From positions 1,054,001 through 1,118,000 of the forward strand of contig JARGXX010000095.1 in NCBI GenBank assembly GCA_030374765.1: DNA of 64,000 bases. The letters are read 5' to 3'. This DNA comes from Agarophyton chilense (Eukaryota; Rhodophyta; Florideophyceae; Gracilariales; Gracilariaceae). Below the pieces are notes generated by a model. That model searched no databases, was not told where the DNA came from, and saw nothing but the letters and a program-made list of their open reading frames with translations. The first letter of the stretch is position 1; every line of letters begins with the position of its first letter. A program made the translations under genes and the position numbers. Shown here one piece after another: positions 28,661 to 51,190 of this stretch.

Positions 28661-29207
28661 ATCATTGGTAACTGTTACATATTTTTCAAAGATTAACTTT
28701 AAATCATCACGTAACACCTGTTGAATGCATTTGACAGAACCTGTCAGAGAAAAGTCGTTACAAAGTTCCCTGGAAGACCTAGTTGAGTTTAAAGCCGATC
28801 AGAGTAGAAATCCTTAAGCCTTCAAAATAATTTCTTGTTATTAGAGCTTCTAAAGCATTTTTTGTAGTTTTTAGGATCTTTGAGAAGTTTCTGGACCACA
28901 TTACCAGAGCGACTAATGGTTTAAGAAATCTCATTTTGAGAACAGCAATGAAATGAAGTTGCAGGTATCACACCTGTTGTAACGCAATGATTGGTGGGTC
29001 AGCGTACTGGTATAAACCTGAGGGAGCGTGGTAGAGCGGGTCCTAAGGCTAGTATCCTTTACGACGGCACTCCCAGAGTACTTAGTGCAATGGGCTGGCG
29101 TTTACTGCGTAGTCCTACAGGTTCCAGCTACGGAAACGATGGCTTTAAAACCATTGGTGGAACTGGTGTACCAAAAAAGGTAATTTAGTATCCTTACTGA
29201 AGGAAAA
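28661..29207. other. Gene-free flank of an LTR
   Basis: A 65-codon plus frame at 28991-29188 (GINLRERGRAGPKASILYDG start region) ends just before the LTR at 29208. It could be a gene fragment cut by that insertion; I do not recognise it. Confidence 0.3.
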
Positions 29208-30094
29208 TGCCCTTCAAGGGGGTTTCTTCCAAGGACTTAGAGATTTCGCTCGCTTGAGAACTAGCTTGGTCTATGACAAGCTATACCGCTATTGCGTGCC
29301 GACGGCCGGTTAGGACCGGAAGTGCACACTGGTGGAACACGTGGACTGCACGGATGCTGACGCTCGAGTGCGAGGCGTGCCACACGTGGCCCGGATTCTA
29401 CCTAATGGATAGTATTATTTAGTATTTTTTAGTTTTTATTTAGCTACGCTATCGCTATTTAGTGTCTATTTTTCGGGCGCGCGCCCACTGTCAGGGGCCG
29501 CGCGCCACACTACTTAGGAGGTTGAGCACTGCTCCCCAGTAAACACCCTCTTGGGAGATCCCAAGGAGGGAGTCCTGGCTATGAACTTTTCGCCTTCGGC
29601 GCGTCTTCACCGCATACTGCGTGAGCGCCCGTCGCACGTTAGTTTATCCACCCCTCTGTCGACCAGAGAGCTACCACCACCGTGGGTTCATATTTAATCG
29701 CCGAGACTTGTCGTAGTCTCGCCCCTGTATAGGGTTTCGCCCCCATTTTCCTCTTGTTCTCCTTTTTGGCTCTCGTGAGTGGCCGCCTCACTCACCCCGC
29801 TCGCCCCCCTCATACGAGTGTTTCCTCGCTTCTTTTCCGACAATCGCCGTGATACCGCTCCGCCTAGGATTGGTCACACCCCGGTCTGTGCCGTGCTCAC
29901 CTAAACACTCTAGATATATCCCGCCAGATTGGCCTCGGTCTTACACCCGGCTCCGTCATGCCTTTCCAGAGTGGCTCTGTTTCTGTGCTCCGCTGGGACG
30001 CGTCTCCTCCGCCTGAGGCGTGTCTCTCAAGAAAGGAAGATCCCGATCATCTATCATCTTCGTGGTGTCTCCGCTCCAAGCGTTGTCCTACACT
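29208..30094 (+). repeat. LTR of family B plus leader (truncated element)
   Basis: 29208-29899 (TG...CA) matches the two LTRs of element B in opposite orientation, and keeps a segment of about 92 bp that the 50-kb copy has lost. 29900-30094 matches the leader next to the 5' LTR of element B (50066 down to about 49880), so this is the 5' end of another B-type element whose gag-pol body is missing. It ends at the short spacer before the LTR of element A. Confidence 0.75.
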
Positions 30095-30517
30095 AACGGT
30101 GCCTACTTTACTCTAAGGGAGAAGCATCACTCGAGACAAGTAAATAGTAATAGCGAGGCGCTGGGATCTCCCTGGCACTGTAATGTGTAGTATTCCACTG
30201 AAGACTGTAGAATTCGGGGTGCAGTGGGTATCCACATAAATAACCGCGAAGATCGGGTGTCAACTTGCGAGCGACGGTTCTTAGATAAGAAGAGAGTGTG
30301 CGGAAGGCAATCAGGTGTGCCTGAACAATGGGGATAATACGTGTATCCACAAGGTGGATGTCCAGATACGGCGGTACGTAATTCACACGAGATCGGCTCG
30401 ATAACGCTTTTGATATCACAAATAACCAGGTAACAGTAGAGAAAACAACAAAGAAACAACACACACACACACACACAAAGCTGTAGAAAAAGGGCGGTAA
30501 ATGCACAACAGTAGGGG

Positions 30518-31696
30518 TGTGACGCAACGCGCCGGGCCCTTATTGAGGACAAGTAGCCACCCTCCACCGACCTTCTTACACTAAGCGGTGACGACGCCGT
30601 AATAGCTGGCATACTGCCAGGATGGAATACCGTGCATGGCGCTAGGTGTCATACGTGTGGCAATGGCCGGCAGCTAGTTCGTGTGGTTGGCACCATACAG
30701 TGCTCTGCACTGTTGCCTTGTAATTATTAATTGTATTTATTAGTTGTAATCTATCGTAATGGCTAACTGCTAAGCGGCCGGCGGTACTTGAGCGCCGGGT
30801 CGCCGGGGGCTAGACGGAAGTAAAGTCCAAGGCGGGAGAGACGCCTCCGAACTACTAGTTCGTGTCTTGAGACTATAGGGTTATAAGACCTTCACTCCCA
30901 GTCGACGCCGACAAGACAGGCAGCAGTCTGATCAACTGCTGCAGAGGTATCTCTCGCGTTTTAGCCTATCGAGAATTCCCCGTCCAGTCCTTGCCCTCAC
31001 GGCCATCGGTCGCCGCGTGGCGCATTGCACTTTCGCTCGGTCTATTGGACCGCTGCCAGTTCTACTGCCCGAGCAGATTGTAGACCCGTATCCGTTGGAT
31101 ACCGAGGTGTGGATCGGGAGCCTCGGATAAGTGAGTATCACTTCCAGGTGCAGCTGGTAAAGCCAGGCAGGCGCATTCGTCTGGGCGCTGGTTCAATCCC
31201 AGGGCTTGCCCTGCTTTGTTATCGTCACCCGTTGGATGTGAGTGATTACCACTTTGTGGCGCCAGTCGGCATAGCCAAGCAGACGCTCTCGTCTGAGCGC
31301 TGGTACAATCTCAGGGCTTGCCCTGCTTTGTTATCGCCACCCGTTGGGTGAAGTGGTTGGTGCGTCGTTGCCAACGTTAGGGTCGTGGCGCTCGTCCCGG
31401 CTCTGGTACAATCCCGGGGCTCGCCCCGGCTACTCGTCATACGCGGCGTATATCCAGGCCGATCACTTCGGTTCGTGTCGGATCGACACCACTCCGAGCA
31501 CGTCTTCCGGACGCCAAGAGCTCCTGTGGAACGATAGGAGTCTGTGTCTAGTCGACACTCCCCGCCTGTGAGACGACGCCTCTCTTGAGTCGTTGCGGAC
31601 TCTAGGGCCAGATAGCCGACCCCGGCTTTCCAGGCTCTGCCCGTGTGTAGCTCTCGCCGCCCGCGGCTGGTCTCCTGAGTAGTGCATTGAGTTACA
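30518..31696. repeat. Solo LTR of family C (1,179 bp) nested in LTR A
   Basis: It starts TGTGAC and ends GTTACA, a near-perfect inverted pair. It is flanked by a perfect 5-bp duplication AGGGG (30513-30517 and 31697-31701). The empty site is preserved in the other LTR-A copy near 13820. It contains the tandem hairpin repeats at 31141-31440. No internal coding sequence. Confidence 0.85.
31141..31440 (+). repeat. Three tandem degenerate units of about 100 bp with hairpins
   Basis: Units begin near 31141, 31258 and 31368. They share gctggt-caatc, a following gggcttgccctgctttgtta and cacccgttgg. Units 1 and 2 hold a hairpin with a 6-bp stem (cagacg/cgtctg in unit 2, with one G-T pair in unit 1). 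The ggttcaatccc of unit 1 recalls the T-arm/B-box of a tRNA, but no complete cloverleaf forms. This is probably an internal LTR expansion, possibly tRNA-derived. Confidence 0.6.
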
Positions 31697-31874
31697 AGGG
31701 GTTATCATCGGAACAAGAGCTATAGCTCAGAACGGTTAAGAACTGATACTATAGGTGCCCCTTCGTGGTGAACCACTTTAGGACTTCCAGGACTCACCAA
31801 GATGGTGTTTAGGTTGGTTGTTGCTTGGCCTTCCACCGTCCTCACCTGGGCCTTGCGCCCTTTAATGTGCCAAG

Positions 31875-32791
31875 TGTAGAGCAACGCCCAGTTAGGGGAT
31901 ACTTGAAGATGCAACTCATAGAATGAGGATTGAACCCTCCGAGGGTTATGACTATGATCCCCTCTAAGGTGTGCTGAGGTGGCACTGTTTTCTGGTTAGA
32001 GTTCGCCTATGAAGGGACAATTCGGATGGCCCATGGTTGGATTGGCCCCGTGATACACGTGGCTTAATTTTGGCACCGATTTTCGGATATTTATTAGAAC
32101 GTTGGACTTTTGGGCCCTGACAGTGGGATCTCCACGTGTATGGCCCTGAGCAGGTGTGCACTACTGTAGAGTTTAGTTAGTGGGCCCTACTTAGGGAGAT
32201 GAGATCTGACAGTCCGAAGCTCAGAGTAAAATGGAAACCCAGGTTGGTCTTCGATACCTTTAGAGGTTCTTCGTCGCCATCGTTTCGGCCTTACAACCCG
32301 GAACGGGCTCTGGTTAGCAACGCCTGCATAGGGACACGACTCCACTTGGAGAGTGCCCACGTTTGGGTTCCGTGCAACCACCCCCTTGGGACCGCTCAGA
32401 CGACCTGCGTGCACGATACCCCGTGGGTGTTCTGCTTACTTGTTGCGTGCTTTTTGTGTTTCCTTTCGAGGACAGGTTTTCGCCCCTGTATTGGGTTTCT
32501 TTTGTTGTTTCGCCCCTTTTCTGGTTCTCGGGTCCGGTGCCTGTTAGTGCCCGACCCTCGCCACGTTTTTCTTCTTCGCCGGATTTTCCCCCATTCTTTG
32601 GGATACCCATACCCATTCCCGATCCAACGGTTTCTACCCCTCACCTCCGTCGGTACTGCCGGAATTCCCCGTGGGAGTTACACCCCACACTACGGGTGGA
32701 ACGGAGGGCTCTGTCTCTGAGTCTGCCTCCCCCAGAGAGCAAGGCTTCGAACACCTTGAGAGCACTTCCCGTCGCCGGGTTTTGCTCCACA
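31875..32791. repeat. Solo LTR of family D (917 bp) nested in LTR A
   Basis: It starts TGTAGAGCAA and ends TTGCTCCACA, inverted termini with one mismatch in ten. It is flanked by a perfect CCAAG duplication (31870-31874, 32792-32796). The empty site is intact near 13998 in the other LTR-A copy (gccaagaggcaaagcc). Confidence 0.85.
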
Positions 32792-33375
32792 CCAAGAGGC
32801 AAAGCAAGAACTGTACAGTAATTCATACACGTGGCGTGCCACTACACAGTTATCTAAATAATACCAAATAAATAAAATATTTGGTGATGACACCTTACAG
32901 TGTACGCTAAATACAGTACTTCTTAATTACATTTATCCTGTCCAAACCTTTCCATGAAGTAGTTCTTCTCATAACTTCTCGTAATCGAGTATCTCCCAAG
33001 CAATAGCCTATGAATGCCGTATCGCGACTTCGTAGTATTTCGAACGGTCGAAATCAGGTGTTTTCAGAATGCTACATATACCCCCGTTAAGAGCGGAGCA
33101 GTCGCGATGCATTGTCTGTAAAATCAATCGCAGCGCGCTTCTCAGACATTCCGAATCTTCTTTTCGTATCACAACCTTGTCTTTCCCCAATCCACCTCGC
33201 GGTCATCTCGCCATTTCATCCTTCAAGCTTTTTTTTGTATCTGACATCTCGCGATTAGCAACTTTCCGTCTAACGTGGTCAATCCACTTACGTCTTATGA
33301 CGATCTCGAAAAACTCCGATCCAGCAGACTTCTGCAACGCCTAGAGGTTCCGCTCCAATCTCCCGAACTGCCCCT

Positions 33376-34905
33376 TTGCCGCAATCGGCATCCAGTCCTG
33401 GTCCTGTAAACCTTTCCTCCACAGCAGCTGTTCTGCAACCTGCGTCCTCCTTCGCACACAGGTTCCCGCATTACGCGGACTTCGTCGGCCGAAACCCCCT
33501 GCAGCAATCTGCTTTATACGCGCGAGTGCCTTGGTTTTTCCATGCTGCGGTCCGCAACGAAGCTCTGATGAATCAGTATGTGGTCGCCGGTTGCCTTCCC
33601 GATGGTATCCCATGGCATGCGTTGTTCACAACATATTGGCTCAGTCTTTGCGCCCTTCCAAACAATGCGATCAGTCGCTTTGGGAACGAGAGCTTGCTCG
33701 ATGCGCGCGAACGATTAACCCGTCTGGTGTACCAGCGATTACGCCGCATGATCGGCTGGGTACCTCTCAATGAGGATTGGCAATTCGATACCTGGTGCGC
33801 CAAAACAAATGGCGAGGCATACTCATATGTGGTGAATCTAGCGGCTTTGGATGTCCAAAGCTGGCGCGGTGTTCGTAGAGTATCCAATGTGGCCCTCTGT
33901 TCCGACAGCCCTCAATTACGCGCGTAATTCCGCTATCTCCGCAAACGGGATAGTCCGTATTTTAAATGCCCCAGGTGGGAATGCCGTACCAGATCTCGAC
34001 TGGGATACTTCGTTCCATACCAGATGCTCGAAATAGACCGAATTCGGTATAACTCGCGCGTCGGGCGCTACGTGCCGATTCCTCAAGATTGGCACGAGAT
34101 CGAGAGTCCTCGTGGCTGTCCTGTAGAGCTCCCTCCTTCAATCACCTACGCAGGTTACTTACTCGAGAATGATCCGTTTTCCGGTTATTGGGTAGTCGTC
34201 TACAGTGAAATCATCGCGAAGATGGCCGTGTTCATTCTTTGAGATGCGTACGACACATATCGTTTGTGGTATATGAGCCCAATTGCTCGACAACTTGCGA
34301 GAGAACTCTATCTGTCGCTCGTCCTGGGCTCACGTGCCAATCACGAAGAATTTCTGCGCCTGATAAATGTCCTTGACCAGATTGACTGGACCCCTGTTCC
34401 TTCTGAACAGCAGGCTAGAGGACGTCCTCGTGGCGACTATTCACCTGGAAGAACCGGTCCCGGCGGTGACTTCGTCTGGTACGACCCCCGGACTATCCAG
34501 CATTTCGACGGCGATCACGCCAAAGTTCTGCGGGAAACACCGCGGGCAATGTCTCCAACCAAGCCGACTGGTTACATACACGAGCCAACTGCTCCAAATG
34601 CAGACGCACACGTTGACGAGATGCACGAAATCGATTACGACGAAAAGCCAGAGGCCGTCATCCTCGAGGATTTCGCTTTGGGTGAGAACGACCGCATAGA
34701 GCCAGTGGTTCCTGCAGCGATGCAGAGAGCTGTGCCTGCGCCTGTTCGACCCGCAGTGGCTTCCCACGATGCCGAGCTTGGCAATCTGAGGCAGTTCCAT
34801 GAAGACGCTGGGATTCCTCCCCACCTTGTTCATGGAAATCGACAGCAGATGCTGAATCTATTGCGCTCCTCGATGGGTATTTACTCGGATAACCCGAATC
34901 CCTAA
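33376..34905 (+). pseudogene. Antisense accessory gene of element A, unknown family
   Basis: One frame, about 510 codons, interrupted by TAA at 33925-33927 and TGA at 34240-34242. The related protein in element B (40771-42435) shows the latter is a changed Trp. Matching blocks include LGYFVPYQ, LLENDPFSGYWVVV (B: LIEDPHSSLWLVV), DAYDTYRLWY and GGDFVWYDP. The C-terminal third is acidic. There is no ATG in frame at the left end; the true start may be ATG 33297 with a frameshift. It lies between LTR and chromodomain, convergent with pol, and is followed by an aataaa near 34961. No known domain is recognised; not gag, not an obvious envelope (no membrane segments). Confidence 0.7.
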
Positions 34906-35082
34906 CTATCTTGCCTGAGGAAACTGTAACAAACCGACTAGCGGTAGTCTTGAGATAACAAAATAAAACGTTTTGATTTTCTGCAACTTCTTTTCTTCTT
35001 CTTCTTTCTGCGAGACATCTCCTCTTTTTGCTTCACTTCTACTTTCTTGTGGACCTCCACTTCATTCTTACACCTCCTAGAG

Positions 35083-37998
35083 TTACTTCATACTTCTGTA
35101 GGGATCAGACTCGATCAGGCTCTCCTGACACAACCAAACCGACGAGATTGTCATCAGTATGGTCTGCGACATCGATTTTAGCACGTCGGCAGTACGCGAG
35201 CACGTGTGATCGTGATATATTGCGTATTGGCTTCCATGTATCGTCTTCGGGTTGATACCCATACCAATGCACGTTAAACAGTAAACTGTTGTCCATTGCA
35301 TGCTATCCATGATCTCGAATGCGTTCGATGATGTATTCCATCTCCTCGGTTGCGGACTTTTCAGTCGGGGTGACACTCCTGTCACCAGGTTCCGTAGCGT
35401 TCGCTGTAGCGTTCGGAATCATGTCATCACGTTCTGTCGTCCCATCCGCCTCCGGAGTTCTCAAAGCCAGTCGTCTGGTTTCTCTATATCTTTCCGATCT
35501 GGCCTGTGCTTTCAACTTCCTTCTCGGGTTTTCCGAACCTTGCGGCGAAAACGCGGCTTCAGTTGCCACTGTACACCTTAGGCTTGCGGCTTTGGGCTTA
35601 TTCTCTTCCGCATTTAAGGGGTCTGGATGTTCTGGGGGTCTCCCCAAGTGCTCGGTATCCGTGGAAAATGGGTCAGCCGATACATTCATACTGTCTCCAT
35701 GTAGCGTCTCCACAACTCCGGTGTCCCTTGTGGACTTCTTCTTTTCTTTGAGACCTGCTGCGGTCCTCCGGGAGAGTTACGCTCTCCAATCCGTTTTGCG
35801 GAATTGGCTTGCTGATCTCAGCTTCGGTTCCTTCTGATTCTACGCCAAATGGAGATTCTGTTCTGTCATCAGGACTCCCTGTAGAGCCTTCACGACTTCT
35901 AATATATGAGGTTTCATCCTCAATTTCTTTCGCGTCCACTGCGTGGTCTAAGGGAGAGACTGCAGTTTAGTGCGCGCTCACAGTGCAGATCGCCGTGTCT
36001 CCTCTCACTGGTACAGTAAGAGCTATGATTATGTCATGGGCGGATTCGCCGTTTGTCGCAGAACTGTTGTTCAGCCCTGTAAGTCGGATCTCCGAACTCT
36101 TTCTACCACGTGGCAGTTTTGGAATTTTTTGCCCTCCGGCAATATTTCTGCGAACTTTTGTACAATTAATGGCTGTGATTGCTTCTGCACCTCAATATCT
36201 CCACGTGCGGACTCCTCTCGCTGTACGTCAGCTTCTCGATCTGGCGCACCAACTACTCAGTCGCGAGAAATGCGCTCCATCTCAGTACCTCTCCGTATTA
36301 CCACGGTATATTCGTCGCATTCGACAACTTCATGCGGTCCTGTAGCGATCGGCGCTAACTTAGGACGGCGTTTCCGTTCCTTTTCCTCCCCGGTCTTCCG
36401 GCTATCTTTCCTTTCCACTCTCACGAAAACGTGTCCTTCGACTCGGATATCCGGGAGTGCCCGTCGCATTGACGCGTCGTAATTACGCTTGTAGCGCGCT
36501 TGGGTCTTTCCCATCTCTTTTGCAGCCTGCGTAGTGCGTTTGCGCAACTCATTCCTCCAGCGTAGGTGAAACTGAGCCGGCGTCGGCACTGACTCTTCTT
36601 CGGTTCTGCCCGAATCTACCTTGATTGGCAAAGCCGCTGGTCGGCGAGATATTACCAATGCAAAGGGTGTTAGCTTCGTCGTGGAATGTACTTGCGTATT
36701 GTACGCGTAGCAAAGCGTTTATGTATACAGATCCCAGTCTTTCGGGTGTTCTCCGATGTAGTGCCGAACTGCGGCGAGTAGTGTACAGTTGTACCGTTCC
36801 ACCTGCCCGTTACATTGCGGATGATTCGTCGTGGTGAACACGTTCTTAACTCCAAGAATCCTGCATACATCTTGAAAGAAGCGTGCAACGAATTGCTTGC
36901 CATTATCTGAGAGCAGAGTATCCGGTGGTCCGTAGTAATAAACCCAATGGTGGATAAACGCTCGTGCTATCACGGAAGTAGTAATCCGTTTCAGCGGAAC
37001 AGTCTTAACCAGCTTAGAGAAGCGATCAGTTATTTCCAAAAGGTATCTGTTTCCTCGCTTCGAGCGGATCGATTCACGAAGTATGTCAATACTGACACAC
37101 TGTAGAGTTGCGATTGCTTGGAACTGCTTTAGTGGCTTCTTCTTTTTCCAGAGCTTCACTCTATTCCTAGCGCACGTTACGCACATCTTAGCTGTCGCAT
37201 GGAAATCCTTTGCCAAAAGTTGGCCAATAAAAGTCCCTTCTGAGGGTTAGATACAGCTTCGTACCTCCGGGATGACCAGACATTTGCGAATAATGTGCCA
37301 AATGCGGTACTCTGCTCTTGAGAGCGTGTGGTATCACGATTTTCTCATACGATTCAAAAGTTCGAACAAAAATTCCTCGATTGTCGAGACGAAAAGGCAA
37401 TACCTCCCCCCCCGTTAAGACGAGAGCGGATAGCCGCGCAGAAGGCATCTGTGACTTGTTCACATAATAGATCTTCAAGAGAGATTCGTTTGATCTGATC
37501 TTCTGGATCAGTGTCCGTAGTCAGTTCTACCAGTAATTGCATTTTATAATCCTGTTCTTCTAGATCTTCTAGTTCTTCTTCTTTCGTTCTTGAATTTACC
37601 CTTACCAAACATGGTATCTCATCGTCGATTTCCAATTGGGTTTCTCTCAAGGTTTCGAGTCGCGATAACGCGTCAGCGTGTACGTTCGAAGTTCCCTTCT
37701 TGTAGTTGATTGTGAAATCAAATTCTGAAAGGCGCAGACGCCATTGCATTAAGCGTCCCGACGGGTCGGTAAGTGACATGAGTCATCTGAGGCATGAAGG
37801 ATCGGTATTGAACGTAAAGTGAGCACCCTGTAGGTAAGGTCTGAGGGTCGTGAGAGCCCAAACCATAGCAAGGCATTCTTTTTCTGACACAGAGTAGTTC
37901 TTTTCTGCCTGGTGCAGTGTTCTCGACCAGTATCCAATAGGATGTCGTATTCCCTCTTCGTGCGTTTGAAAGAGGGCACACCCCAGTGAGCATGGTAT
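35083..37998 (-). pseudogene. Pol remnant of element A: RNase H, integrase, chromodomain
   Basis: Blocks in order on the minus strand: RNase H (CALFQTHEEGIRHPIGYWSR, then KGTSNVHADALSRL near 37690); the H2C2 integrase finger (HYSQMSGHPGGTKLYLTLRR near 37290); integrase core (SIDILRES, LLSDNGKQF, TTTNHPQCNGQVERYN); the RNYDASM/GPHEVVE integrase C-terminus (36500-36260); a Ser/Thr-rich linker (35939-35303); and a chromodomain-like end (VHWYGYQPEDDTWKPI near 35250). Several frame changes and stops occur. The chromodomain suggests chromatin-targeted integration, as in chromoviruses. Confidence 0.75.
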
Positions 37999-37999
37999 C

Positions 38000-38355
38000 T
38001 ACCCCAAATATGGGCCAAATATGGGCCAAATTTGTTCTAATATTTTAGTGCACAATGTGACCCGCATATGTCCCAAAATTGGGCCTTAGAACTGGTCCAA
38101 ATGTAGTCATTAAGAGATGGACTAAATGTAGGCATATAATAGCGACCCAAAAATGACCCTGATGGGACCAATTCCGGTCCAAATACAATCAACATTTCAC
38201 CAAAAAGCTCTTCAAAGCTGTTCGGAATGGGAATTGTTTAAGGGCGATAGGCACCTATAACTAGCAGTTCGAAACTGTAATAATGTATGGCAAAAGAAGG
38301 GTGCAATATGTACGAAACATGACTCAGTGAAAGATTTGTTAATGGCATAAGTTGG
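38000..38355. other. Junction of element A with tandem gggccaaatat motifs
   Basis: Right of the truncation point, 38011-38040 has three close copies of an 11-bp motif (ccaaatatggg type), and looser ccaaa/gggcc copies continue to about 38200. It may be the 3' untranslated part of the gene at 38356 or a small repeat element. Confidence 0.35.
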
Positions 38356-39829
38356 TCAGAAGATTACCAATATTTGTTCCAAAGCAGTACTGCTAGTAAC
38401 CTTGTTTTGGCGACCATGGAATGTAATCACGAATGGTTCCATGTGCCAGTATCTTAGGGACGTGGGCGAGGTGCACGAAAAGCTAGTCGGCTGGGCTTGG
38501 AAGAGCTTGCGCGAGCAGTGGATAGCATTGAACCTCTGTGTCAAAGCTGTAGGATGTAAACCGTCACTATGCTTTCCTCCACGGCCTTTCTTCATTCTCT
38601 TATGGCGACGGCCCGGTTCGCGGTCACTTAATTCGATTTCACGAATGCGCTTTTTGAACCCAGAGCCGTTTTTCTTTGACGAAATAGGCACACGAGGCTG
38701 GATTTCATCCTCACTGATTTCAATGCCATCATAACCCGGCGCTGGGAAATGTGATCAGAGCTACTGCGACCAATTTCACACTTGTCAAATGTTGGTTCTG
38801 CTTGTGAACAAGAGAAAACGATATCTGTATGTCCATTACCAGAACGTTCGTTCATAGGTGAAGTCCTTTGATTTAAATCGCTGTTGAAATCATCTTCCTT
38901 TTCAACGAGGCGCTTCCCCTTTGAGGGCTTCTTTCCGCGCTGCTCGCTCTGCGCCTTCGAAGCCACACAAGGCTCAGTTCGAGAGTTAGACACGTGAGAA
39001 GAAGGAATAGGCCGAGTAGTTGCATTGTTGCGGGCGTTTGCACAAGAGCTCAATATGTTTACAGCAGGAGATGTTGAACCTGGTGTATCCAGGGCGAGGA
39101 ACCCCTGTTCGGTGACTTTTGACTTTGATACATTACGGGGTACATCTGATTGGCCTTGGGGAGCAGACTGTGAAAAGCGTTCGCTGTTCGCGCTGTTCAT
39201 TTTCGCGTTCTGCACCATAACGGCTTTCTTGTCTCGTTGCGTAACTTCTTTCACAAACTCAGTGACGATCCAGGCGTTTTGCGAGGCGGCAGGTACTGGA
39301 AAGGTTTCCAGCACCTTCTTCTTAAGCTGGTTCAACTACAACGAATACTAAAGTTTTATCTGGCGATAGGTCTGTTTACCTCGATTTATTCCAACCTTGC
39401 GGTACAAGTACTGCTGAATGAAATCCTTGACAGCGTTTGCCATCTCCAGATAAACGGGAAAGTATTGGTGCTGATCCACTTCAATGTTAAGCATCTCACA
39501 ATAGACCCTATTGAATACTATTCGCGCAGCAAATGGGCTCCCTGTGGGTAAATTAGGGCGAACAGTCGTTTTGAATCGCCTCTTGTGTGAAACCGAAGGT
39601 ACCGTTAGAGAATTGGGGTCCAACATGTCTACTTCTCGCACATCAGCGGATTTGGTACCACTGTGAGAGAGTGAGTTCTGATCGGCAATGATGCCTCCAT
39701 TTGTATTGGTGACCTTATTCATGACTTCTGGAAGAATGAATGTCAGTCAGTATATTTTCGTATGACAGATGATTCAGTTTCGAAGCTTACCTTTGAGAGA
39801 AGATCGGAGGAACAAATCTGCCCAATAGG
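38356..39829 (-). pseudogene. 3' part of a multi-exon gene, cut at its 5' side by an LTR
   Basis: Exons can be chained on the minus strand: up to 39791, 39727-39396, 39326-38840 and 38741-38356. The introns are 63, 69 and 98 bp with GT..AG ends (gtaagc..ttccag, gttgga..aaccag, gtaatg..ttcccag) and matching phases. Skipping the second intron removes two TAG codons. Readable parts include DLFLRSSLKEVMNKV, RIVFNRVYCEMLNIEVDQHQ, LEMANAVKDFIQQYLYR and a basic Lys/Arg-rich C-terminus. The frame stays open right up to the LTR boundary at 39829 (TYWADLFLRS), so the missing 5' exons were presumably separated by the insertion. Function unknown. Whether it is transcribed from LTR sequence is open. Confidence 0.5.
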
Positions 39830-40521
39830 TGAGCACGGCACAGTCCGGGGTGTGACCAATCCTAGGCGGAGCGGTACCACGGCGATTGTCGGAAAAGGAG
39901 CGAGGAAACACTCGTATGAGGTCGACGAGCGGGATGAGTAAGGCGGCCACTCACGAGAGCCAAAAAGGAGAACAAGAGGAAACGGGGGCGAAACCCTATA
40001 CAGGGGCGAGACTATGACAAGTCTCGGCGATTAAATATGAACCCACGGTGGTGGTAGCACTCTAGTTGACAGAGGGGTGGATGAACTAACGTGCAACGGG
40101 CGCTCACGCAGTATGCGGTGAAGACGCGCCGAAGGCGAAAAGTTCAGAGCCAAGACTCCCTCCTTGGGATCTCCCAAGAGGGTGTGTACTAGGGAACAGT
40201 GCTCAACCTCCTAAGTAGTGTGGCCCGCGGCCACTGACAGTGGGAGCGCGCCCGAAAAATAGCCACTAAATAGCGATAGCGTAGCTACATAAATACTAAA
40301 AAATACTAAATAATACTAACCATTGGGTAGAATCCGGGCCACGTGTGGCACGCCTCGCCCTCGAGCGTCGGCATCCGTGCAGTCCACGTGTTCCACCAGT
40401 GTGCACCTCCAGTCCTAACCGGCCGTCGGCACGCAATAGCGGTATAGCTTGTCATAGACCAAGCTAGTCCTCAAGCGAGCGAAATCTCTAAGTCCTTGGA
40501 AGAAACCCCCCTTGAAGGGCA
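39830..40521 (-). repeat. 3' LTR of element B (692 bp)
   Basis: Minus strand TGCCCTTC...GTGCTCA. A purine tract AAGGAGGAAGA (40544-40534) precedes it by 12 bases. It is similar along its length to 50067-50667 and 29208-29899. It keeps the segment of about 92 bp (39951-40042) deleted from the 50-kb copy. Confidence 0.85.
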
Positions 40522-40770
40522 TTATAATTCATATCTTCCTCCTTAGGTGACGAACACGTCGTTGACATGGCGCGGAGGCAACGGTCCAACCGACATAAAA
40601 ACTAGCCGCGTAACGCGTCCAGCGACCACTCGACTGTCGAAGGCAGAGCTGCGCAACCGAACGACAAACGCACCAACGCGGTAACCACTCCTCGAACTTC
40701 GAGCGTTCTTCTGCATCGTACATCAACTTCCAGAGACCACATTCCGATACCTCGGCGACCAGTATTCCCG

Positions 40771-42435
40771 ATGAACGGTGGTAACAATCCCCGCCGGGGT
40801 TACTTCTCCGTTTTCCATTCGGCTCCCCTTCCGCGGAGGAGTGCCTCGTCAACCGCACCGAGCCGATCCCGGGGTCCCGTTGAAGCTTCAAGCCACGTCA
40901 CTCCTGCGGAAGACACCTGGTCCACTTACGACGAACTCGTCGGGTTAAACCCGCGTCAACATGCGGCGATTCTCCGGAGAGCTCCGTGGTTCCATCCGAC
41001 AGCGTTCTTCGACGAAGAATTCGTGGCGTCTTATGCTGATGGCAAAGCGCGTCTCCCGGGCGAGCTGCCGGCTTTGATCACCACCTCGTGGGATTGGCGA
41101 CGCCGTGTGGCGGTTCTCGTTCACGCGATTCTGCGGCGAAGGCGCGATTCGGCGGAGGAGGCGCATTGCATATTTGTCCGCATCGGCTATTCTCAGATCA
41201 ACCGGGCGAACTTTCAATAGCCCATCCCCGACGAATTCGGCTTCGACCTACGGATGTACCGGACTCAGGGTGACATCGGCTATTGTGACCGCCTTGCGGC
41301 GTTGGAAACTTACGCATGGCGCGGTCAACCGCGAGCGCGTCAAGAAGCGATCTGCTGGGTCCGTCCGATCATTCGTGCCGAGTTCTGTCACCTTCGTCGT
41401 GAGTCCCCATATCGGTGGTTACAGAACTTCATCCGCGAGGAGCATCAAGGCAGATCCCGCTTTGGGTTCTTTGTCCCTTATCAGAACACGGAGATAAACC
41501 GGATTAGTCCCTTCTATCAGTTCGGACGATACTTTCGCCTGCCTGGGTGGTGGTCCTCGGTCGAGGTGTGCCGGGGATGTTACGTGAAGTTGCCTCGAGT
41601 CGTCTCCTATCTGGGCTCGTACCTCATCGAGGATCCGCACTCCAGCTTATGGCTTGTGGTCCTAACCGAATGGACAGTCCGCGCCGCGGCGTACATCTTG
41701 TGGGAAGCCTACGACCAGTATCGACTGTGGTATCTTCCTCCGCGTTTGCGTGGTTACATCCGGCAGCTGGACCTTCAACTCCCTCTTGGAGGTGTCAATA
41801 ACGCTGATGAAGCTCAGGAGCTCATCGACATCATTGGGCGTGCCGACTGGGCTGTCGTGCCTGTCCGGCAGATCGGCCGTGGTCAAGAAGCCGGTGGGGC
41901 TGATTGGTCTCCGGGGCGACGCACGCCGTTGGCGGGAGATTTCATCTTCTTTAACCCATGGGAGCAGCAAGAGATCTCCGAGGCGGAGGCGTCGGCACTC
42001 CGGATGGCTCCGCGAGGCGTACCATACGGGCACCCCGTGGGGTTTGTCAACTTCGATGACTTCTACTACGCCTATGGCGGTGATGATCTCCCGGACGAGG
42101 AGGGCGAATACCGTGGCGACGAGGTCATGGAAGACGCGGGAGACCCCGATGGTGCCGATACTACGGCGCAGCCGGCGCAGGGAGCGACTCACGCAGGTGC
42201 AGTGGTCGATCCAGTGGCGGCGGCGTTGCCGGACGAACCGGAAGTTATCGAGGTTCCCATACGCCCGGAGGCGGCCGTGATCATCCAGTTCCTTCGGGAT
42301 GTCGGACTGAACGCGCAAGCGGCGAGCGGCGACATCGGTACGATGAGAGACGCCCTCGTTGCACGCCTGGCCGGTGGGAGTAACTCCGCTAGCGATTCGG
42401 CTGGCGTGCACGGTAATCCGGGTTCTTTCAACTGA
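40771..42435 (+). pseudogene. Antisense accessory gene of element B, unknown family
   Basis: A 554-codon frame from ATG 40771, broken only by TAG at 41218-41220; the frame is the same before and after. It starts 250 bp inside the 3' LTR and runs opposite to gag-pol, ending 213 bp from the chromodomain stop. Residues 45-75 (YDELVGLNPRQHAAILRRAPW) match YADFVGRNPLQQSALYARVPW of element A; RFGFFVPYQ, EDPHSSLWLVV, EAYDQYRLWY, LAGDFIFFNPWEQQ and a following VPYGHPVGFVN also have counterparts there. The tail is acidic (GGDDLPDEEGEY), and the last 60 residues look like a small helical unit. No known domain, no signal peptide, no membrane helix. Confidence 0.75.
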
Positions 42436-42647
42436 TCCCTTGGGATCTTGGTTAGTATATCCCACTGTGCGGTAGTGTATGCAGCAACTTCGAAAATAGT
42501 AAACTGCTTCCGCTTATGACGTATTTGTTTTCTTTCTTCTCTTCCACTTCTTCTGAGTGTCCTTTTCCAGGTCTTCTGTGCATCTTCTCCTTCTTCCAAG
42601 GGTCCTTATCCAGATCTTCTGTTCCTTTATCCCCATCGGATGTCTTC

Positions 42648-45600
42648 TTATCCCACTTGGGCTCGGTCTATGGTAGCCGGCAAAGCCTTAACAGTACGAC
42701 GATCATACTGTACTACCTTTGACCGAGGTAGGTGCTCTATCGGTTCGTCAGAATCCCATTCGGGACCGTACCCGTACCAACGGACCAAGTATTGGATATA
42801 CCCCTTTGGGTGGTAGGAGTGCTCCAGAATGCGTCCGACCACGAACTCTTGTCGGTACACTTCCCGGCCATCCCGTATGACGGTGTCGCTATTTCCGGGT
42901 GGTACCCGTCCTGAGCCAGGGGGTACCGAAGTGATCACGCGTTGGGCGGCTTCGCTCCGGTCGGACCGTGTAGCGCGCAAGGCAGTCCTCGGCTGAGTAG
43001 AATGTCGACCCGACTTCGGCGGTTCATTTTCTCCAAGTGCCGGACTTGTTTCGGCGCTTCCCACCCCGGTTGGAGGGACCACACCAGCGGGTAACCCGGG
43101 TGGTCGTTCCGCTAATCGTCGTGGTGAAGCTCGCTCTGGCGGTTAGATTCGCTGGGGCGGTGGCGCATTGTCGCACCTCTCTGTCCCACGGCGAGGTTCA
43201 GTGTAGTCACGTGAGGGTTCCAATGGCTTGCTGTCCGGCGTCGGCGCCGTGGATGTATCCGCCTGCCTGTGCGGGGTACTTGGTGGTGCGTCGTCCACTC
43301 GTACTGTATCAGACTGCGGTGCATCGAGCGCATTTGCATTCCGTGTTGCACGTGTGGAGACACCTCGTCGAGTGTTGGTGGCGTTATCCGCATCTGCGTT
43401 CTGAGGCTTGGATAGCGGCTGCGTCGAGTCGTGCAGGACGTCGGTATCAGGCACCCCTGATGGGCAAAGAATGACACGCAACGGTGCGGCGGTTCCAGCG
43501 ACGGTATCGACCGGATTACGACGGCTGTCGGGCGCCTCCCCCTCCTTAGACGATGCACTGGGGTTGGTGTCCGTCGGGTGGACTGGGGAGGAGCGACGTA
43601 TACGCGCCACGATTCCTTGCGGGTTGGGCGCCGCGGGTAGCGGAAGGTCAGACAAACGCCGAGATAGGTGTGGTAACGCGTAGGGACGCGGGTGGACCTG
43701 GGGTAAGGGGGTCGATGAATCCGTTTCAACGGGAGCAGTCACACCAGTAGGTTGGGATGTTAACGGCGGAGGAGCCGAAACCACGCGATCTCGGGAGATA
43801 CGTTCGTGATTACCAGAGAGGTCAACAATGACAGTGTCGGGAGCCACTGAAATAACCCGAAAGGGGCCGTCGGCAACGGGTGACAGCTTGTGGCGTTTCT
43901 CCTTCTCTGGGTTCCAATACTCCTTGCGGATGAATACATAACCGTCGGGGGCGAGACGTGGCGGAGAGCGAGGGGCTTTGGAATCAAAGTCACGCTTGTA
44001 AGCGGCCTGGGCTCGGCCTATTGAACGCCGTGTGGCGGGAACGAGCTTCGTGAGCCAAGTTCTCCACGCTTCGCGGTAAGCAGTCGGTGACGGAAAGGTA
44101 TCCAGCGTGGGCTGTGGTTCCAGCGCCACGGGCGGTGGAGAACGGGACAGTACCAGCTCGAAGGGCGTTAATCCAATTGTCCTCTGCACCTGCGTATTGT
44201 ATGCAAAGGTGAGCGCATCAGTGAACAAGTCCTAATCTTTGGGGTGGTCTGCAACGTATGAACGGAGTGTCGCAAGTAATGTCCGGTTGAACTGTTCGGC
44301 CTGCTCATTAGTTTGGGGGTGGTAAGTGGTCGTGAACAGGTTCTTAATGTCCAAGATGTGACACACATCCTCGAAGAAACGAGAGGCGAACTGTCTCCCG
44401 TTATCGGAGAGGAGGTTGACCGGTGGACCGGAGACGAAGACCCAGTGTAGGACGAAGGCTTGAGCAACGCTCATAGCGGAGATCTTCCATAATGGTACGG
44501 TCCGGACCAGCTTGGAGAATCGATCCGTAATTACGAGTAAGAAATTGTAATTCCGCTTAGTGGTAAGGAAGGGACCGAGTATATCGATGGCCACAGACTC
44601 CAATGGAGCGCGAGCTGGAAACAGCATCAACTTCGTCGCATGACGGCGGAGTTTGACACGGTTCCGAGCGCAATCGGTACAAAACCGCACCGTTGCGTAG
44701 CAGTCCACTGCCATGGCAGGCCAGTAGAAGTTACGGCGTAGGGTGAGGTAAAGTCTCCGTCCCCCGACGTGGCCACTCAGTTTGGAGTAGTGCGACATCC
44801 GCAATACTGTTGACTGGAGGTTATGTGGTACCACGATTTGTGGGTGCGATCCGACAGTGCGTACAAGGTGTCCGGCGTCATTCACCTGAAAGGGGAGATT
44901 ACCTCCTCCATTGAGTTGAGCGCGGACCTTCGCGCAGAACGGGTCAGCGGATTGCTCCCGTATCATCTCCTCTGCAGTATTAGGCACGAAGTTCCCTGGT
45001 AAGGGTTTCTCGGAATCTTCCGAGAGAAGAAACTCGTCCAATTCGGAACCGGAATCTGAAGGGTCCGTGTCTTGTTCCTCGTCCTCGATGGTAACGTCGT
45101 CGCCATTCACTGCAAAGCAGGGTATTTAATCGTCTTTGACGGGTAGTGCTTCGCCAGTAGTGACCAGGCGGGAGAGAGCATCGGCTTGGGTGTTGCACGA
45201 TCCTTTTCGGTACTGCACGTCAAAGTCAAATTCTGCTAGACGGAGACGCCAACGCATCAAGCGGCCTGAAGGCTCCGAGATGGAGAGTAGCCATCGAAGT
45301 GATGCGTGGTCCGTAAAAACGGTGAAATGATTACCCATGAGATAGGGGCGCAACGTGTGTAATGCCCACACTACTGCAAGGCATTCGTTCTCCGAGACGG
45401 ACTAATTTTTCTAGTGGACGTTTAGCGATCGGGACCAGTTCCCTACGGGGCGTCTTTCCCCATTAAATGCAGTTTGAAACAGTGCACAACCTACTTGGTA
45501 GTCGCTGGCGTCCGTATCTACGGTGAAGCCTTCCAGGTTTGGGCAACGAGACGATCGGGGTGGAGACGACAGAATCTTTAAGAGAGTTGAAAGATTCCGT

Positions 45601-47654
45601 TTGAACGGGCGTTAAGGGGTCCAGTTTTGGTGGTTGGCCTTTCCGCAAAAGCGCGTTTAACGGTGCAGCCTTGTCCGCAAAGTGAGGGATGAATCGTCGG
45701 TAGACGTTTGCAAGTCCCAAAAAGGAACGAAGCTCGGTTTGCGTCCGCGGTTCTTTACCCTCTTTGAGTGACTTAACACGAGTCTCCTCGATTGTAAAAC
45801 GTCCTGGACGGATAACAGGGCCGCGATACTTCACGGTGTCAGTGAAGAAGTCAAATTTCTTCAACTTAAGAGTGACACCTGCATCTCGTAGCGTAGACAT
45901 GATATCCCTCACATGAGTGAGATGTTTGTCCAGATTATCTGAGAAGACGATTATGTCATCCAGGTAGACCAGGCAGGTACGCCATTTGAGGCGGTCCAAT
46001 AGGATGTCGATGGCTCGCCGGAAAGTGGCGGTGGCGTTGGTAAGACTAAAAGGCATCCGTTTGAAACGGTAGAGACCGGAGTGACACGCGAAAGCGGTTT
46101 TCTCCGGGTCTTGCTTCCTTACCGGAACTTTCCAGTATCCCCAATTGGCTTCCAGGGTTGTAAAGACGGTGGCGGTGCCCAGCGAGTCAATGTACTCGTC
46201 CATTCCTGGGATTGGATACACGTCCTTGACGGTAACGGAATTCAACCGACGGTAGTCGACGAAAAACCTCCAGGAACCATCCTGGTTTGGAGCCAGTACT
46301 ACTGCAGAAGCCCACGGTGACAGAGCCGTTTCAATGACTCCTGCTCGAAGCATTTTATCCACTTGTGCCTTTTCCTCCGCGCGTGCGGCTGGGCCGGCAC
46401 GGTATGGGTGCTGAGAGATGGGTCGGGTGTCCGGTAGCAAATCAATCCGGCGTTCCGTAGTGGCAATCTCACCGAGGGAGCCGTCTCGCATAGTGGTGAA
46501 GTCCCTTAAAAGTTCTCGCAATCGATGGGGGTATGACTCCGGGACGTGGCTGAGATCCAGGTCCTCGAGTTCTTGGACTGGATCGGGGCGGGCACCACTC
46601 GTTGAAACGGGCTGCGTCCCTGATGTTACAGGTTGAACCCCGGGTACCGATGATGAAATGGGTTCCGGGCTGTCCCCCTCCTTAGAGTGAACGAGTCCGA
46701 GAACGTCAGGTGCGGTCAGCTTTGTCGGCACCATAGCGATGGGGTGCGGCATGACGGACCCTATCACTTGGTTCTTTACCAGATACTGGGGTACAGTCCC
46801 TAGATTGGCGATCAGCACGTGAAACGGTTGGTTTGGCTCCACATGGACGATTCCATTCGCAATTGCGAGGCTGTGCCTGTCATACAGTGACGACAATGGT
46901 TGCAAGACCCGGAATCCGTGTTGACGGGAGGTTACTTTCACCATCATTTGGGACTCAGGCGGGACGCACAACGACGCTGCGACGCGGAGCTTATTAGATT
47001 CAAGGTTATCCGGTCCAGGTTCCTGTGCTGCCGGTAGCAGGACATGCTTCTTCGTGGAACGCCTAAGCGGACGACGAACGATCGGAGTGGACGATCCATC
47101 CTCCATCTCGACACGCCGTTGGCAGGGGAAGATCACTTTGACGAAGTTGTCGCAAAAGTCGCAACCCAAGAAGACTGGGGCGGCTAATTTCCGACATACG
47201 ACGAAGTCGAGTTTCACCACACGAGCGCCAACGCGGACTACCAGTTCTATGAACCCCACCGTATCCAACGGTTTGTTGTTCGCGTCAGCGACCTCTGGGA
47301 CGTGGTCGCGGCGGATCCTAGACTGCAATGCAGGCGGTAACACTTCCTCCAGGACAAAGTTCGGACCGGCACCGGTGTCTAAGACGGTAAGGTGTCGCAC
47401 CATAAACTGGGATGGAAGGCCAAGGTCAGCATAGACCTTGTAGTTTCTCTTGGCCATCACCAGCACTCTATCCGGGAACCGGTTATGGGAAACCCGTTTC
47501 CACGGACGACGCAGAACACTAAAGTGTTCCGAGTTCACGTCATTGACGGCCTCTTTCCTTGAAAGAATTTTGACCGGGGAGCGAGGCTTGGACGCCTCGG
47601 GCGCCGTCGACCTCGACTCTGAGGGCGCCCCTCCTTGAGAGGAGACTGCCACAT
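42648..47654 (-). pseudogene. Pol polyprotein of element B
   Basis: From the N-terminus: aspartic protease (VLDTGAGPNFV near 47390); reverse transcriptase (FVDYRRLNSVTVKDVYPIP, RMPFSLTNATATF, YLDDIIVFS near 45980); RNase H (DTDASDYQVGCALFQ, FTDHASLRWLL, QADALSRL); integrase H2C2 finger (HYSKLSGHVGGRRLYLTLRR) and core (SVAIDILGPF, LLSDNGRQFASRF, TTTYHPQTNEQAE); integrase C-terminus; and chromodomain (YLVRWYGYGPEWDSDEPI near 42760). The RT motif normally FxTLDAN reads FTTLEAN, replacing a catalytic Asp by Glu. Breaks: one indel near 45545, TAG at about 45412 and 45403, TAA 45126-45128, TAG 44232-44234 (a changed Trp) and TAA 43143-43145. Confidence 0.85.
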
Positions 47655-49715
47655 TTAGTTTTTCAGGGCCTGCTCCGCCGGAGGCGGCTGCTCAGGGCGT
47701 TGAGCGGGCAACGCCTGGGCATTAGGTCCAGAAGGTACCGCAGAAGCGGTGGGGTGACCGACCACGTCGGTGACACGGGAATCCGGTGCACCTACCACCC
47801 GAGCTCGGGGAAGCGACATGTGACGTGGAACATCCGTTCGAGCACGGATATACGATGCAATCGGAACAGCTGCTTTGTCCTCCGGGGATAGGGCCTCGTA
47901 ATTGACTACGACTTGTGCCCATTCTCGGAGAAACAACACAAATTGTGGAGAAGTATGGCCTGGTTTGTAGCAGAGATGACAAATCAGACCTGAAGCCAGT
48001 GTTGGGTGGCGTGGCTCGGCGAACTTCACCGCGGGGCTGGTATCTCTCCAATCAGGACGCGAAAAGCGGACATTACCACTCTCGTGTGGGACGCGTGGCG
48101 CACGAACGCGACCATTATCCGCATAGAGTAGCGTGTCATCCTCAATCACGTATTGTGACTCGTCCAAGTTTGAGGGTAACTCCGTTGACGGGATGGAATG
48201 AACTTCTCTATGGGCTAGCTGCACGTTATCATAATCCCTCCCAGAGGCCTGTTCGTCGATCATCGAAGCTGACGGGGTACCCGGTTGTAACATCAACGCT
48301 TTTGCGGACCTAGCCCTGGATCCAGGAGTGCGTGCGCGCAAGGCTTCACCTTCTGCACGAGCAAACTGCACTAGTTCCAAATACGTGACTTTAGGTCTAT
48401 CTTCTCGACGTCGAGCAACAAGAGTCCGGATCGCCGGGTCCAAACCATCGACAAACATGGTGCAACGCTCTTCAGCGGGGTAAACATTGCCACAGCGGTG
48501 GAAGGCCTTGTTAAGGCGCGACGAATAATCGGTTTCCGACTCGCCTGGACGTTGGCGAGTGTCCCGCAGGGCTAGTATAGCCTGCTTAATGGCGGAGTTA
48601 GTAGCATACGACCTCAGGAGGTATTGAACTGCTTCAGGCCCGCATGTCACCCCTCCTTCGGAGGCGCGTGATGAACCTCTGACAGAGTGATACTGGTCTT
48701 CTGCAAGCCCACGTAAGAAGTACGGTAAGGCAATGTAGGCCTGTCCCTCGTTCATTCCAAGGATGTCAGCTTCCGCGAAAAAGCGTGCCAAGAAATCCAA
48801 CACCATTATTGGGTCTTCTCCAGAAAACAACTGGTTGCAAAGTGAGAGCTGCATTCGCTTAATGCAGTCCTTCACTCTTCCCGTACCACGGGGTGTACAA
48901 TCCAAAGAGGACTCCTCCAAACGGTAGTACCGGTATGATAAGAGCTTCTTAAAGAGCGAATTGGTCGGTTTCAGCTCCTTCAAACCTGTGTGCTTCCTTC
49001 CCTTCGTGCGGGCACGGATCACACCATAGGTGGCTGTTGACCGCTTAGAGCGTGAGGAACGCTCACGGCGAGCTACTTACACCCATGAATCGGAAGAGTC
49101 GGACTCCGAGGTTGAGGAGTCTGACGGTTCGGCATCCGTGTTCCTTCGCTTCTTTCGAGCCTGGCGGTTCTCTTCCTTACTTGCCTTGTGGGATACTGCA
49201 ACCGGCTCGGCCGGATCATCCCCCGACATTAGGGTTTGTTCCAAAGTCTCGAGACGGCTTCGGACGCGCGAGAAATTGTCCGCGACGTCCTTGACAAAGG
49301 CCGAGGGTACACCAAGGGACTCTAGAATCGAGTTCACATCCTCACGGAGGACAGGGAGGTCCTCAGAAAAATCCTGCGTAGCAGTGTCATTTACTTTCTT
49401 GTGAAGGGAATCGAACTCCTCTGCAAGGATGACTTGAGCTTCCCACATAGAGCGGAGTTGCTTTTTCACAGCTGCAAAGCTGGGATGGAGAGCGATATCC
49501 CTTGCAGGCGAGAGCATTTGGGCGGCGGCAGACGCCGGTCCTGCTCCACTTGCTGGGGGTGTCTAATCAGAGACAGAAGGTCTCGAGGTCCTTCCACCTG
49601 CCACGCCAGTCGATTCACCGGTATGAGACCGTGAACGGACCGGGATACGGAATGGTTGCGATGGTTCCGGTGCACTGGTTTGACTCCGCGTCCTCGGACG
49701 GTCTTTGGACGACAT
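47655..49715 (-). pseudogene. Gag of element B
   Basis: One frame from ATG 49715, interrupted by TAG 49563-49565 and TAA 49077-49079. The N-terminal part is Ser/Arg-rich, then a helical stretch, then the retrotransposon gag capsid block (MVLDFLARFFAEADILGMNE, GLAEDQYHSVRG, GESETDYSSRLNKAF) at about 48800-48500. A zinc knuckle follows (CHLCYKPGHTSPQF near 47960) whose last Cys is Phe, so the CCHC finger is incomplete. The pol frame is minus one relative to gag and overlaps its end. Confidence 0.8.
47658..47664 (-). promoter_or_regulatory. Candidate -1 ribosomal frameshift site gag/pol
   Basis: gaaaaac on the minus strand directly precedes the gag stop TAA (47657-47655). Gag codons are ctg aaa aac taa; slipping back one base continues cta aat gtg into the protease frame, which is open across the junction. 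An AAAAAC slip site at the very end of gag is a standard retroelement arrangement. Confidence 0.5.
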
Positions 49716-50066: not shown

Positions 50067-50667
50067 TGAGCACGGCACAGTCCGGGGTGTAACCAATCCT
50101 ATGCGTAGCGGTACCACTGCGATTATCGGAAAAGGAGCGAGGAAACACTCGTATGAGGTGGACGAGCGGAGTGAGTGGAGCGGCCACCCACGGTGTTGGT
50201 AGCACTCTGGTCGACAGAAGGGTGGATAAACTAACGTGCGACGGGCGCTCACGCAGTATGCGGTGAAGACGCGCCGAAGGCGAAAAGTTCATAGTTAGGA
50301 CTTCCTCCTTGGGATCTCCCAAGAGGGCGTTTACTGGGGAGCAGTGCTCAACCTCCTAAGTAGTGTGGCGCGCGGCCCCTGACAGTGGGCGCGTGCCCGA
50401 AAAATAGCCACTCAATAGCGATAGCGTAGCTACATAAATACTAAAAAAATACTAAAAAGTACTAACCGTTGGGTAGAATCCGGGCCACGTGTGGCACGCC
50501 TCGCCTTCGAGCGTCGGAATCCGTGCAGTCCACGTGTTACACCAGTGTGCACTTCCGGTCCTAACCGGCCGTCGGCACGCCATAGCGGTATAGCTTGTCA
50601 AAGACCAAGATAGTCCTCAAGCGAGCGAAATCTCTAAGTCCTGGGAAGAAACCCACCTTGAAGAGCA
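50067..50667 (-). repeat. 5' LTR of element B (601 bp)
   Basis: Minus strand TGCTCTTC...GTGCTCA, homologous to 39830-40521 with scattered substitutions. About 92 bp is missing, with short ccac repeats at the deletion point. Confidence 0.8.
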
Positions 50668-50669
50668 TT

Positions 50670-51190
50670 GCACTTCAGAGTTAAAATGGTTTTAGATGTT
50701 GAGGAAAAGTTTAATATCGATGGTTTCGAAGTCTGTGAATACTATTCCTTTGAATTGAAAAAATGAAAGTCAATATTCTGCGCATAAAAATTGCGGTGCT
50801 TCAGTTAGTTTTTGCGAGGCTTGATAAATATATAGTGTATCTGAGCTCATAATTACAAGTTTTTATCAGAATGCAGAGAAGTTTTGCTTTATTTTACAGA
50901 CAAGCTTCCTTTTCTGTAACTGAGGTGTTTGGAGAGTTCTAAACGTATATTTTTCAACAAGAAAATGATTGGATTGATATGGGAAAATCCCCTCGTACTT
51001 GAAAATTTCAGAGTTTTTTTTAGATTCTACATTGGTCGGCAGAATCTCCAGATGTCAATATAATTGAAGATTTGTAGTTGAGATTGGAAGGAAAGTTTAT
51101 TTGGTCACAAGCAGTTTGAAAATGTTGAAGAATTGATGACAACTATTTTAAAGTGTGGGAATAAATTGCGCCGGCTTACTAAATGAAACT
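50670..51190 (+). pseudogene. Tc1/mariner transposase C-terminal relic
   Basis: One plus frame reads FQQENDWIDMGKSPRT, then after two stops ILHWSAESPDVNIIEDL, matching the FQQDNAPxH and W..SPDLNPIENLW blocks of Tc1/mariner enzymes in the right order and spacing. The following TAG replaces the Trp. Its N-terminal part is absent; element B lies directly to its left. Confidence 0.65.

What the first reader, a model, noticed from the sequence alone, without database searches (positions are those of the whole stretch)
33376..42435. Two diverged chromoviruses share an opposite-strand gene of unknown family
In both gypsy elements a long frame (about 510 and 554 codons) lies between the chromodomain and the 3' LTR, reading against gag-pol, starting 250-300 bp from the LTR and ending just past the pol stop. 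In each it stays in one frame across 1.5-1.7 kb, broken only by one or two stops, and the two proteins match in order at many blocks (for example EDPHSSLWLVV versus ENDPFSGYWVVV, and AYDQYRLWY versus AYDTYRLWY). Plant Ty3/gypsy elements of the Ogre/Tat type are known to carry antisense frames, but I do not recognise this protein. Conservation between diverged copies implies selection on the protein while the elements were active, so this looks like an undescribed accessory gene.
Basis: partly seen in the sequence, partly recalled or inferred. Interest (0 to 1): 0.88.

Follow-up and report, generated by a model that had tools for sequence, protein, structure and literature searches.

The report
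Antisense accessory gene in algal retrotransposons
Retrotransposons of a red seaweed carry a real, selectively conserved protein gene written on the strand opposite to their replication genes; the only relatives we found are in red algae or in unnamed database sequences, and its function is unknown.

Summary
Both Ty3/gypsy elements in the window carry, between pol (ending in a chromodomain) and the 3' LTR, a long frame against gag-pol: + 40567-42435 (two internal stops) and + 33301-34905 (two stops, start codon lost). The host is a red alga, probably Gracilaria (Agarophyton) chilensis. Its 80-Mb genome holds about 400 matching places (lower bound) in at least five families. Fetched A, C and D loci include uninterrupted frames of 611-685 codons. 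In 58 of 60 loci found by this gene it lies tail to tail with pol. Between families codon positions 1 and 2 are conserved and position 3 is near random, while every sense frame has stops. Sense-strand constraint is thus excluded, and selection acted on the antisense protein. Family relationships match those of integrase. Homologues are hypothetical or unnamed proteins of Gracilariopsis chorda, Gracilaria domingensis and Agarophyton chilense. No significant Pfam, NCBIfam, PHROG, PDB or fold match was found, no membrane segment is expected, and it does not resemble gag. It resembles in arrangement the antisense genes of plant Retand/Grande and fungal Boty, but did not match TRP28. Whether intact elements lacking it exist was not tested. 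Function (nuclear regulator) is inferred only.

The parts
40567..42435 (+). Element 2 antisense gene (family A copy), 623 codons with stop, two internal stops (40603, 41218)
   Evidence: its 404-codon open part matches 103 places in the genome, itself included
33301..34905 (+). Element 1 antisense gene (family B copy), 535 codons with stop, stops at 33925 and 34240, start codon lost and frame changed upstream
39830..40526 (-). Element 2 3' LTR (697 bp); the antisense transcript must start in it or just after it (inferred)
   Evidence: edges read by eye
50067..50672 (-). Element 2 5' LTR (606 bp, lacking part of the sequence of the 3' LTR); aligned parts 90-93% identical
   Evidence: edges read by eye
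40527..40545 (-). Putative polypurine tract beside the 3' LTR, just before the antisense ATG
   Evidence: read from the sequence
42648..43142 (-). Element 2 pol end with chromodomain (PF00385, E 1.9e-6), convergent with the antisense gene
44232..45125 (-). Element 2 integrase (PF17921, PF00665)
45463..47691 (-). Element 2 reverse transcriptase region (PF00078, E 8.3e-27)
47655..49076 (-). Element 2 gag-like frame (by position only; no Pfam hit)
36719..37520 (-). Element 1 integrase pieces (PF17921, PF00665)
35132..35446 (-). Element 1 chromodomain end of pol (tblastn similarity to family C and A tails)

Best explanation
It is a true protein-coding accessory gene of a lineage of red-algal Ty3/gypsy elements with a chromodomain, carried antisense between pol and the 3' LTR. 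Shown: the frame, its opposite orientation to pol, its presence in several families, protein-level selection in the antisense frame, and co-divergence with integrase. Inferred: because the ATG lies only 40 bp from the LTR edge in element 2, the mRNA starts inside the 3' LTR (its U3), which then works in both directions, and runs towards pol. Inferred with low confidence: the product is a soluble protein of about 560-620 aa, with a variable Ser/Pro-rich N-terminus, a partly basic, mostly helical core, an acidic linker and a short C-terminal helical segment. It would act in trans on the element's own cycle, most likely as a nuclear regulatory or nucleic-acid-binding factor of the kind proposed for Grande GENE23 and Retand TRP28.
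For: Between families A, B, C and D (one copy each, six pairs) nucleotide identity at codon positions 1, 2, 3 was 0.66/0.71/0.37 (B-C) and 0.62/0.66/0.36 (A-D), about 0.5/0.55/0.3 in the other four. The five other frames hold 3-26 stops per sequence; the antisense frame has none, but these four copies were chosen for that. 58 of 60 loci are convergent with pol. 27 of 103 A places, 52 of 71 D places and 54 of 77 F places have no stop in the main matched stretch (my counts of the tables). The pairs (A,D) and (B,C) are closest for both integrase and antisense protein. Homologues are annotated in three named red algae, one perhaps the host itself. No membrane segment is expected (seven proteins).
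Against: No expression data. Within families, pN/pS in the antisense frame is only mildly below 1 for singletons (0.79 A, 0.83 C, 0.52 D), and one sense frame of D gives 0.55. Shared changes against singletons are not significant in the antisense frame (p 0.067, 0.887, 1.0), while three control frames reach p 0.028-0.048. Changes shared by three or more copies gave 0.45 in A but 1.09 in C. The structure model is poor (mean pLDDT 52.6). Nothing ties the protein directly to nucleic acid or the nucleus. Whether intact elements without the gene exist was not tested.
Confidence: 0.85

Rival explanations
1. The frame is a by-product of coding constraint on the sense strand (an overlapping sense ORF).
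For: Sense ORFs of about 200-417 codons overlap parts of the antisense gene in many copies.
Against: In the family comparison all three sense frames hold stops (3-26 per sequence). The one whose third position coincides with that of the antisense frame, and so could mimic the signal, has 17-26 in 500-558 codons. The sense frame in register with the antisense codons has pN/pS 1.07-1.19.
Confidence: 0.02
2. A host gene or another mobile element's gene was captured recently and independently in several families.
For: Origin unknown; homologues are annotated as ordinary genes in G. chorda and G. domingensis, whose surroundings I could not see.
Against: Same place and orientation in A-E (58 of 60 loci) and in the one F locus fetched. 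Pairwise identities agree with integrase (pairs with C rest on 73 integrase residues).
Confidence: 0.1
3. It is an extra structural protein (capsid-like or envelope-like).
For: Length, helical core and low-complexity tail are not unlike a gag product; position between pol and 3' LTR is that of env.
Against: Opposite strand; highest 19-residue Kyte-Doolittle mean among seven proteins 1.63. No profile similarity to the element 2 gag-like frame and no fold match, though the model is weak.
Confidence: 0.12
4. The antisense RNA, not the protein, is what matters (dsRNA-based self-limitation).
For: Convergent genes with a gap of 202-495 bp would give complementary RNA if either transcript reads through; proposed for other elements (PMC7264820).
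Against: Conservation follows codons and amino acids, not the nucleotide sequence as such.
Confidence: 0.04

Closest known systems
Antisense additional ORFs (aORF-3R) of plant Ty3/gypsy elements: Retand, Grande GENE23, RIRE2
   Same: Antisense to gag-pol, between pol and 3' LTR, conserved, function unknown (PMC7264820, parts 1-2 of 3 read; PMC11963269, abstract and passages)
   Different: No PF04195 (TRP28) match in hmmscan of nine members at E up to 10 (the program's filters drop most matches above about 0.1). The elements here end in a chromodomain, whereas Retand is a non-chromovirus lineage. Host is a red alga.
Boty of Botrytis cinerea
   Same: Non-plant element with an antisense extra ORF (named in PMC7264820)
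   Different: Its protein was not compared
HBZ of HTLV-1
   Same: Antisense retroviral gene; HTLV has an antisense promoter in the 3' LTR (PMC7264820 part 2; PMC11963269 passage)
   Different: Retrovirus; HBZ was not compared here with this protein
Chromoviruses
   Same: RT, integrase and C-terminal chromodomain found in element 2
   Different: I saw no described chromovirus with such an antisense gene in the listings

Membership tests
Antisense additional ORF (aORF-3R) of Ty3/gypsy elements | Long ORF antisense to gag-pol, between pol and 3' LTR | tested here: met
Antisense additional ORF (aORF-3R) of Ty3/gypsy elements | Protein-level conservation | tested here: met
Antisense additional ORF (aORF-3R) of Ty3/gypsy elements | Present in most copies of a family | tested here: inconclusive
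Antisense additional ORF (aORF-3R) of Ty3/gypsy elements | Antisense transcription from its own promoter | not testable with these tools
   no RNA data
Retand TRP28 antisense protein | Transposase_28 domain PF04195 | tested here: not met
   hmmscan of 9 members, E up to 10: no PF04195; a profile-profile comparison was not run
Chromovirus | Ty3/gypsy RT and integrase, LTRs | tested here: met
   element 2:
Chromovirus | Chromodomain at the C-terminal end of pol | tested here: met
   PF00385 E 1.9e-6 in element 2
Chromovirus | Place in the RT tree | not tested
   no RT tree was built
Envelope-like protein | Transmembrane segment, sense orientation | tested here: not met

The most novel reading that the evidence does not exclude
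A previously undescribed protein family, encoded antisense, is an ancient and obligatory part of a whole clade of red-algal chromodomain retrotransposons. It arose independently of the plant and fungal antisense genes and uses the LTR as a two-way promoter, so antisense accessory genes have evolved several times in Ty3/gypsy elements for the same need. (Lowered from 0.45 on re-check: absence from other intact elements was not tested.)
Probability: 0.4. Interest if true: 0.72.

Novelty: new variant of a known kind. Interest (0 to 1): 0.6.

Why it matters
Antisense extra genes of Ty3/gypsy elements are a standing puzzle because their function is unknown; the review read here lists them mainly from plants, plus fungal Boty. 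A protein family without detectable similarity to TRP28 in our search, in chromodomain elements of a red alga, with hundreds of places and many open frames, gives an independent case to compare. It also suggests that some proteins annotated as hypothetical in seaweeds are retrotransposon genes.

Full report
Host and elements. Three searches with the antisense protein or alignments of it returned ten proteins: two hypothetical proteins of Gracilariopsis chorda (BWQ96_03215, BWQ96_10156), one of Gracilaria domingensis (FGB62_50g12), one unnamed product of Agarophyton chilense, and six without a name (P0001, P0008, P0010 with source tag lgn; P0005, P0007, P0009 with tag ena) (in each only the 7986-7995 candidates sharing most words were scored). 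The A. chilense protein is 90.6% identical over 502 residues to a family C copy in this genome. The genome has 79.8 Mb in 135 contigs. The published G. chilensis assembly has 76.07 Mb in 138 contigs and 66.2% repeats (PMC10388701, abstract and passages). The host is therefore probably Gracilaria (Agarophyton) chilensis or a close relative; this is inference. Element 2 spans about 39830-50672 on the - strand, with LTRs, reverse transcriptase and chromodomain and integrase. Element 1 has integrase and chromodomain pieces within 35132-37520.

The frames. In element 2 the frame runs from an ATG at 40567 to 42435, 40 bp from the LTR edge, with stops at 40603 and 41218. In element 1 it runs from 33301 to 34905 with stops at 33925 and 34240; the part further upstream lies in another frame and has lost its ATG. 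The two proteins match far above 200 shuffles in three parts. Both copies are broken. The antisense frame of element 2 ends 212 bp before the pol stop, so the genes converge without overlap.

Copies in the genome. Family A: 103 places, at 84-91% identity apart from the window's own, 27 of 103 without a stop in the matched part. Query from family B: 150 scored rows, 51 at 70% identity or more (B, some of them pieces of one copy) and 99 at 43-53% (mostly family C, some another family, E). Family D, the closest to a G. chorda protein: 71 main places, 52 without a stop in the main stretch (one of these has a stop in its second piece). Family F: 77 places, 54 without a stop. One search adds rows with a 652-codon frame that may be a further family (G), not fetched. 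Stop counts are mine from the tables. The tool scores only the best candidates, so the roughly 400 rows are lower bounds for places, less a few split copies. In fetched loci the longest uninterrupted stop-to-stop frames are 667 codons (A), 584 (B), 662 (C) and 685 (D). Fifteen D copies that I aligned (15 of 18 fetched; three failed my start-motif filter) differ by a median of 3.2% (1.8-4.1%), so that family is young.

Arrangement. Of 60 fetched loci, 58 have a chromodomain or integrase match on the strand opposite to the antisense gene beyond its end, with a gap of 202-495 bp. The two others (L005, L039) have no such match in the stretch held. The one F locus fetched shows the same order. Since loci were found by the antisense gene, this does not show how many elements lack it.

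Selection. One open copy each of families A, B, C and D was compared codon by codon (six pairs, 509-570 codons). The antisense frame has no stops, which follows from the choice of copies; the five other frames hold 3-26 stops per sequence, which does not. Identity at codon positions 1, 2 and 3 is 0.66, 0.71, 0.37 for B-C; 0.62, 0.66, 0.36 for A-D; and about 0.5, 0.55, 0.3 for the other four pairs. The sense frame whose third position coincides with that of the antisense frame, and so could mimic the signal, has 17-26 stops. For B (L033) against C (L021), dN/dS was 0.16, with dS near saturation (2.65); for the other between-family comparisons of that call dS could not be computed. This is selection on the antisense protein while the elements were active. 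Within families the evidence is weak. Singleton pN/pS is 0.79 (A), 0.83 (C) and 0.52 (D), with 0.55 in one sense frame of D. Changes shared by two or more copies give 0.57 in A (Fisher p 0.067 against singletons), 0.89 in C (p 0.887) and 0.51 in D (p 1.0), while control frames reach p 0.028 (A) and 0.043 and 0.048 (C). Changes shared by three or more copies give 0.45 in A and 1.09 in C. The choice of open copies also biases these counts.

History. Integrase-core identity is highest for A-D (0.76) and B-C (0.64); antisense identity is highest for the same pairs (0.48 and 0.51) (pairs with C rest on 73 integrase residues). The gene has thus probably travelled with pol since before these families split. 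Four Gracilaria species are said to have diverged about 100 million years ago (PMC12502185, abstract in the listing; passages). Presence in Gracilariopsis as well suggests a greater age, or horizontal transfer. I could not see whether the proteins of other species lie in LTR elements.

The protein. Profile and sequence searches gave no family. The conserved core holds PILRAEFRYL, an ER..R.R.G..VPYQ stretch, GC.VELPP..TY.GS and AYD.YRLWY. The N-terminal part is variable and rich in Ser and Pro; part of the core is basic (highest core block +3 to +9 net charge per 60 residues in the four families), the stretch after it acidic (lowest block -9 to -15), and a short C-terminal helical segment follows. 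The highest 19-residue hydropathy mean in seven proteins is 1.63, so a membrane segment is unlikely. The second AlphaFold2 model has mean pLDDT 52.6 and pTM 0.52, with helices at residues 227-249 and 276-291 among the better parts. No fold match was found.

Comparison with what is printed. Antisense ORFs between pol and the 3' LTR are known in plant Grande, RIRE2, Retand and PvRetro13 and in fungal Boty. Their function is unknown; Grande GENE23 is nuclear and transcribed from a promoter upstream of it (PMC7264820, parts 1 and 2 of 3 read). Retand antisense ORFs mostly carry TRP28, predicted to bind DNA, and Retand is a non-chromovirus lineage (PMC11963269, abstract and passages). PMC2864245 (passages) mentions an additional ORF of unknown function in its figure of fungal Gypsy elements; the word antisense does not occur in it. 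I found no report of such a gene in red algae or in chromoviruses in the listings. That library lacks most subscription papers, among them (recalled) the Gracilariopsis chorda genome paper.

Verdict. A real gene, a protein family new to the searched libraries, and a new host lineage for a known kind of arrangement. Function is unproven.

Noticed in passing
window 29206-29899: Another copy of the element 2 LTR, in the opposite orientation, 95% identical to the 3' LTR; whether it is a solo LTR was not checked.
   Followed up: partly
window 13496-14276 and 30186-33077: Direct repeat blocks (85-87% identical) that may be LTR copies of element 1's family; the copy at 30186-33077 is split by extra sequence.
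   Followed up: no
window 31151-31350: An 88-bp repeat in two copies 112 bp apart (start to start), 85% identical.
   Followed up: no
window 17485-23344 and 52640-62087: Host-like genes by Pfam: HAD hydrolase, starch-binding (CBM20) protein, PrsW-type protease, KDPG aldolase, acyltransferase and a 1074-aa S49 peptidase.
   Followed up: partly
G000 contigs C5, C49, C68 (coordinates): Evenly spaced identical integrase or antisense matches (every 9734 bp on C5, every 6523 bp on C49, every 9197 bp from C68:3138241) suggest tandem arrays of whole elements, or assembly artefacts.
   Followed up: no
L041-L058, family D: A sense-strand frame of 411-417 codons overlaps the antisense gene in many copies; sense frames hold stops in the family comparison.
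   Followed up: partly
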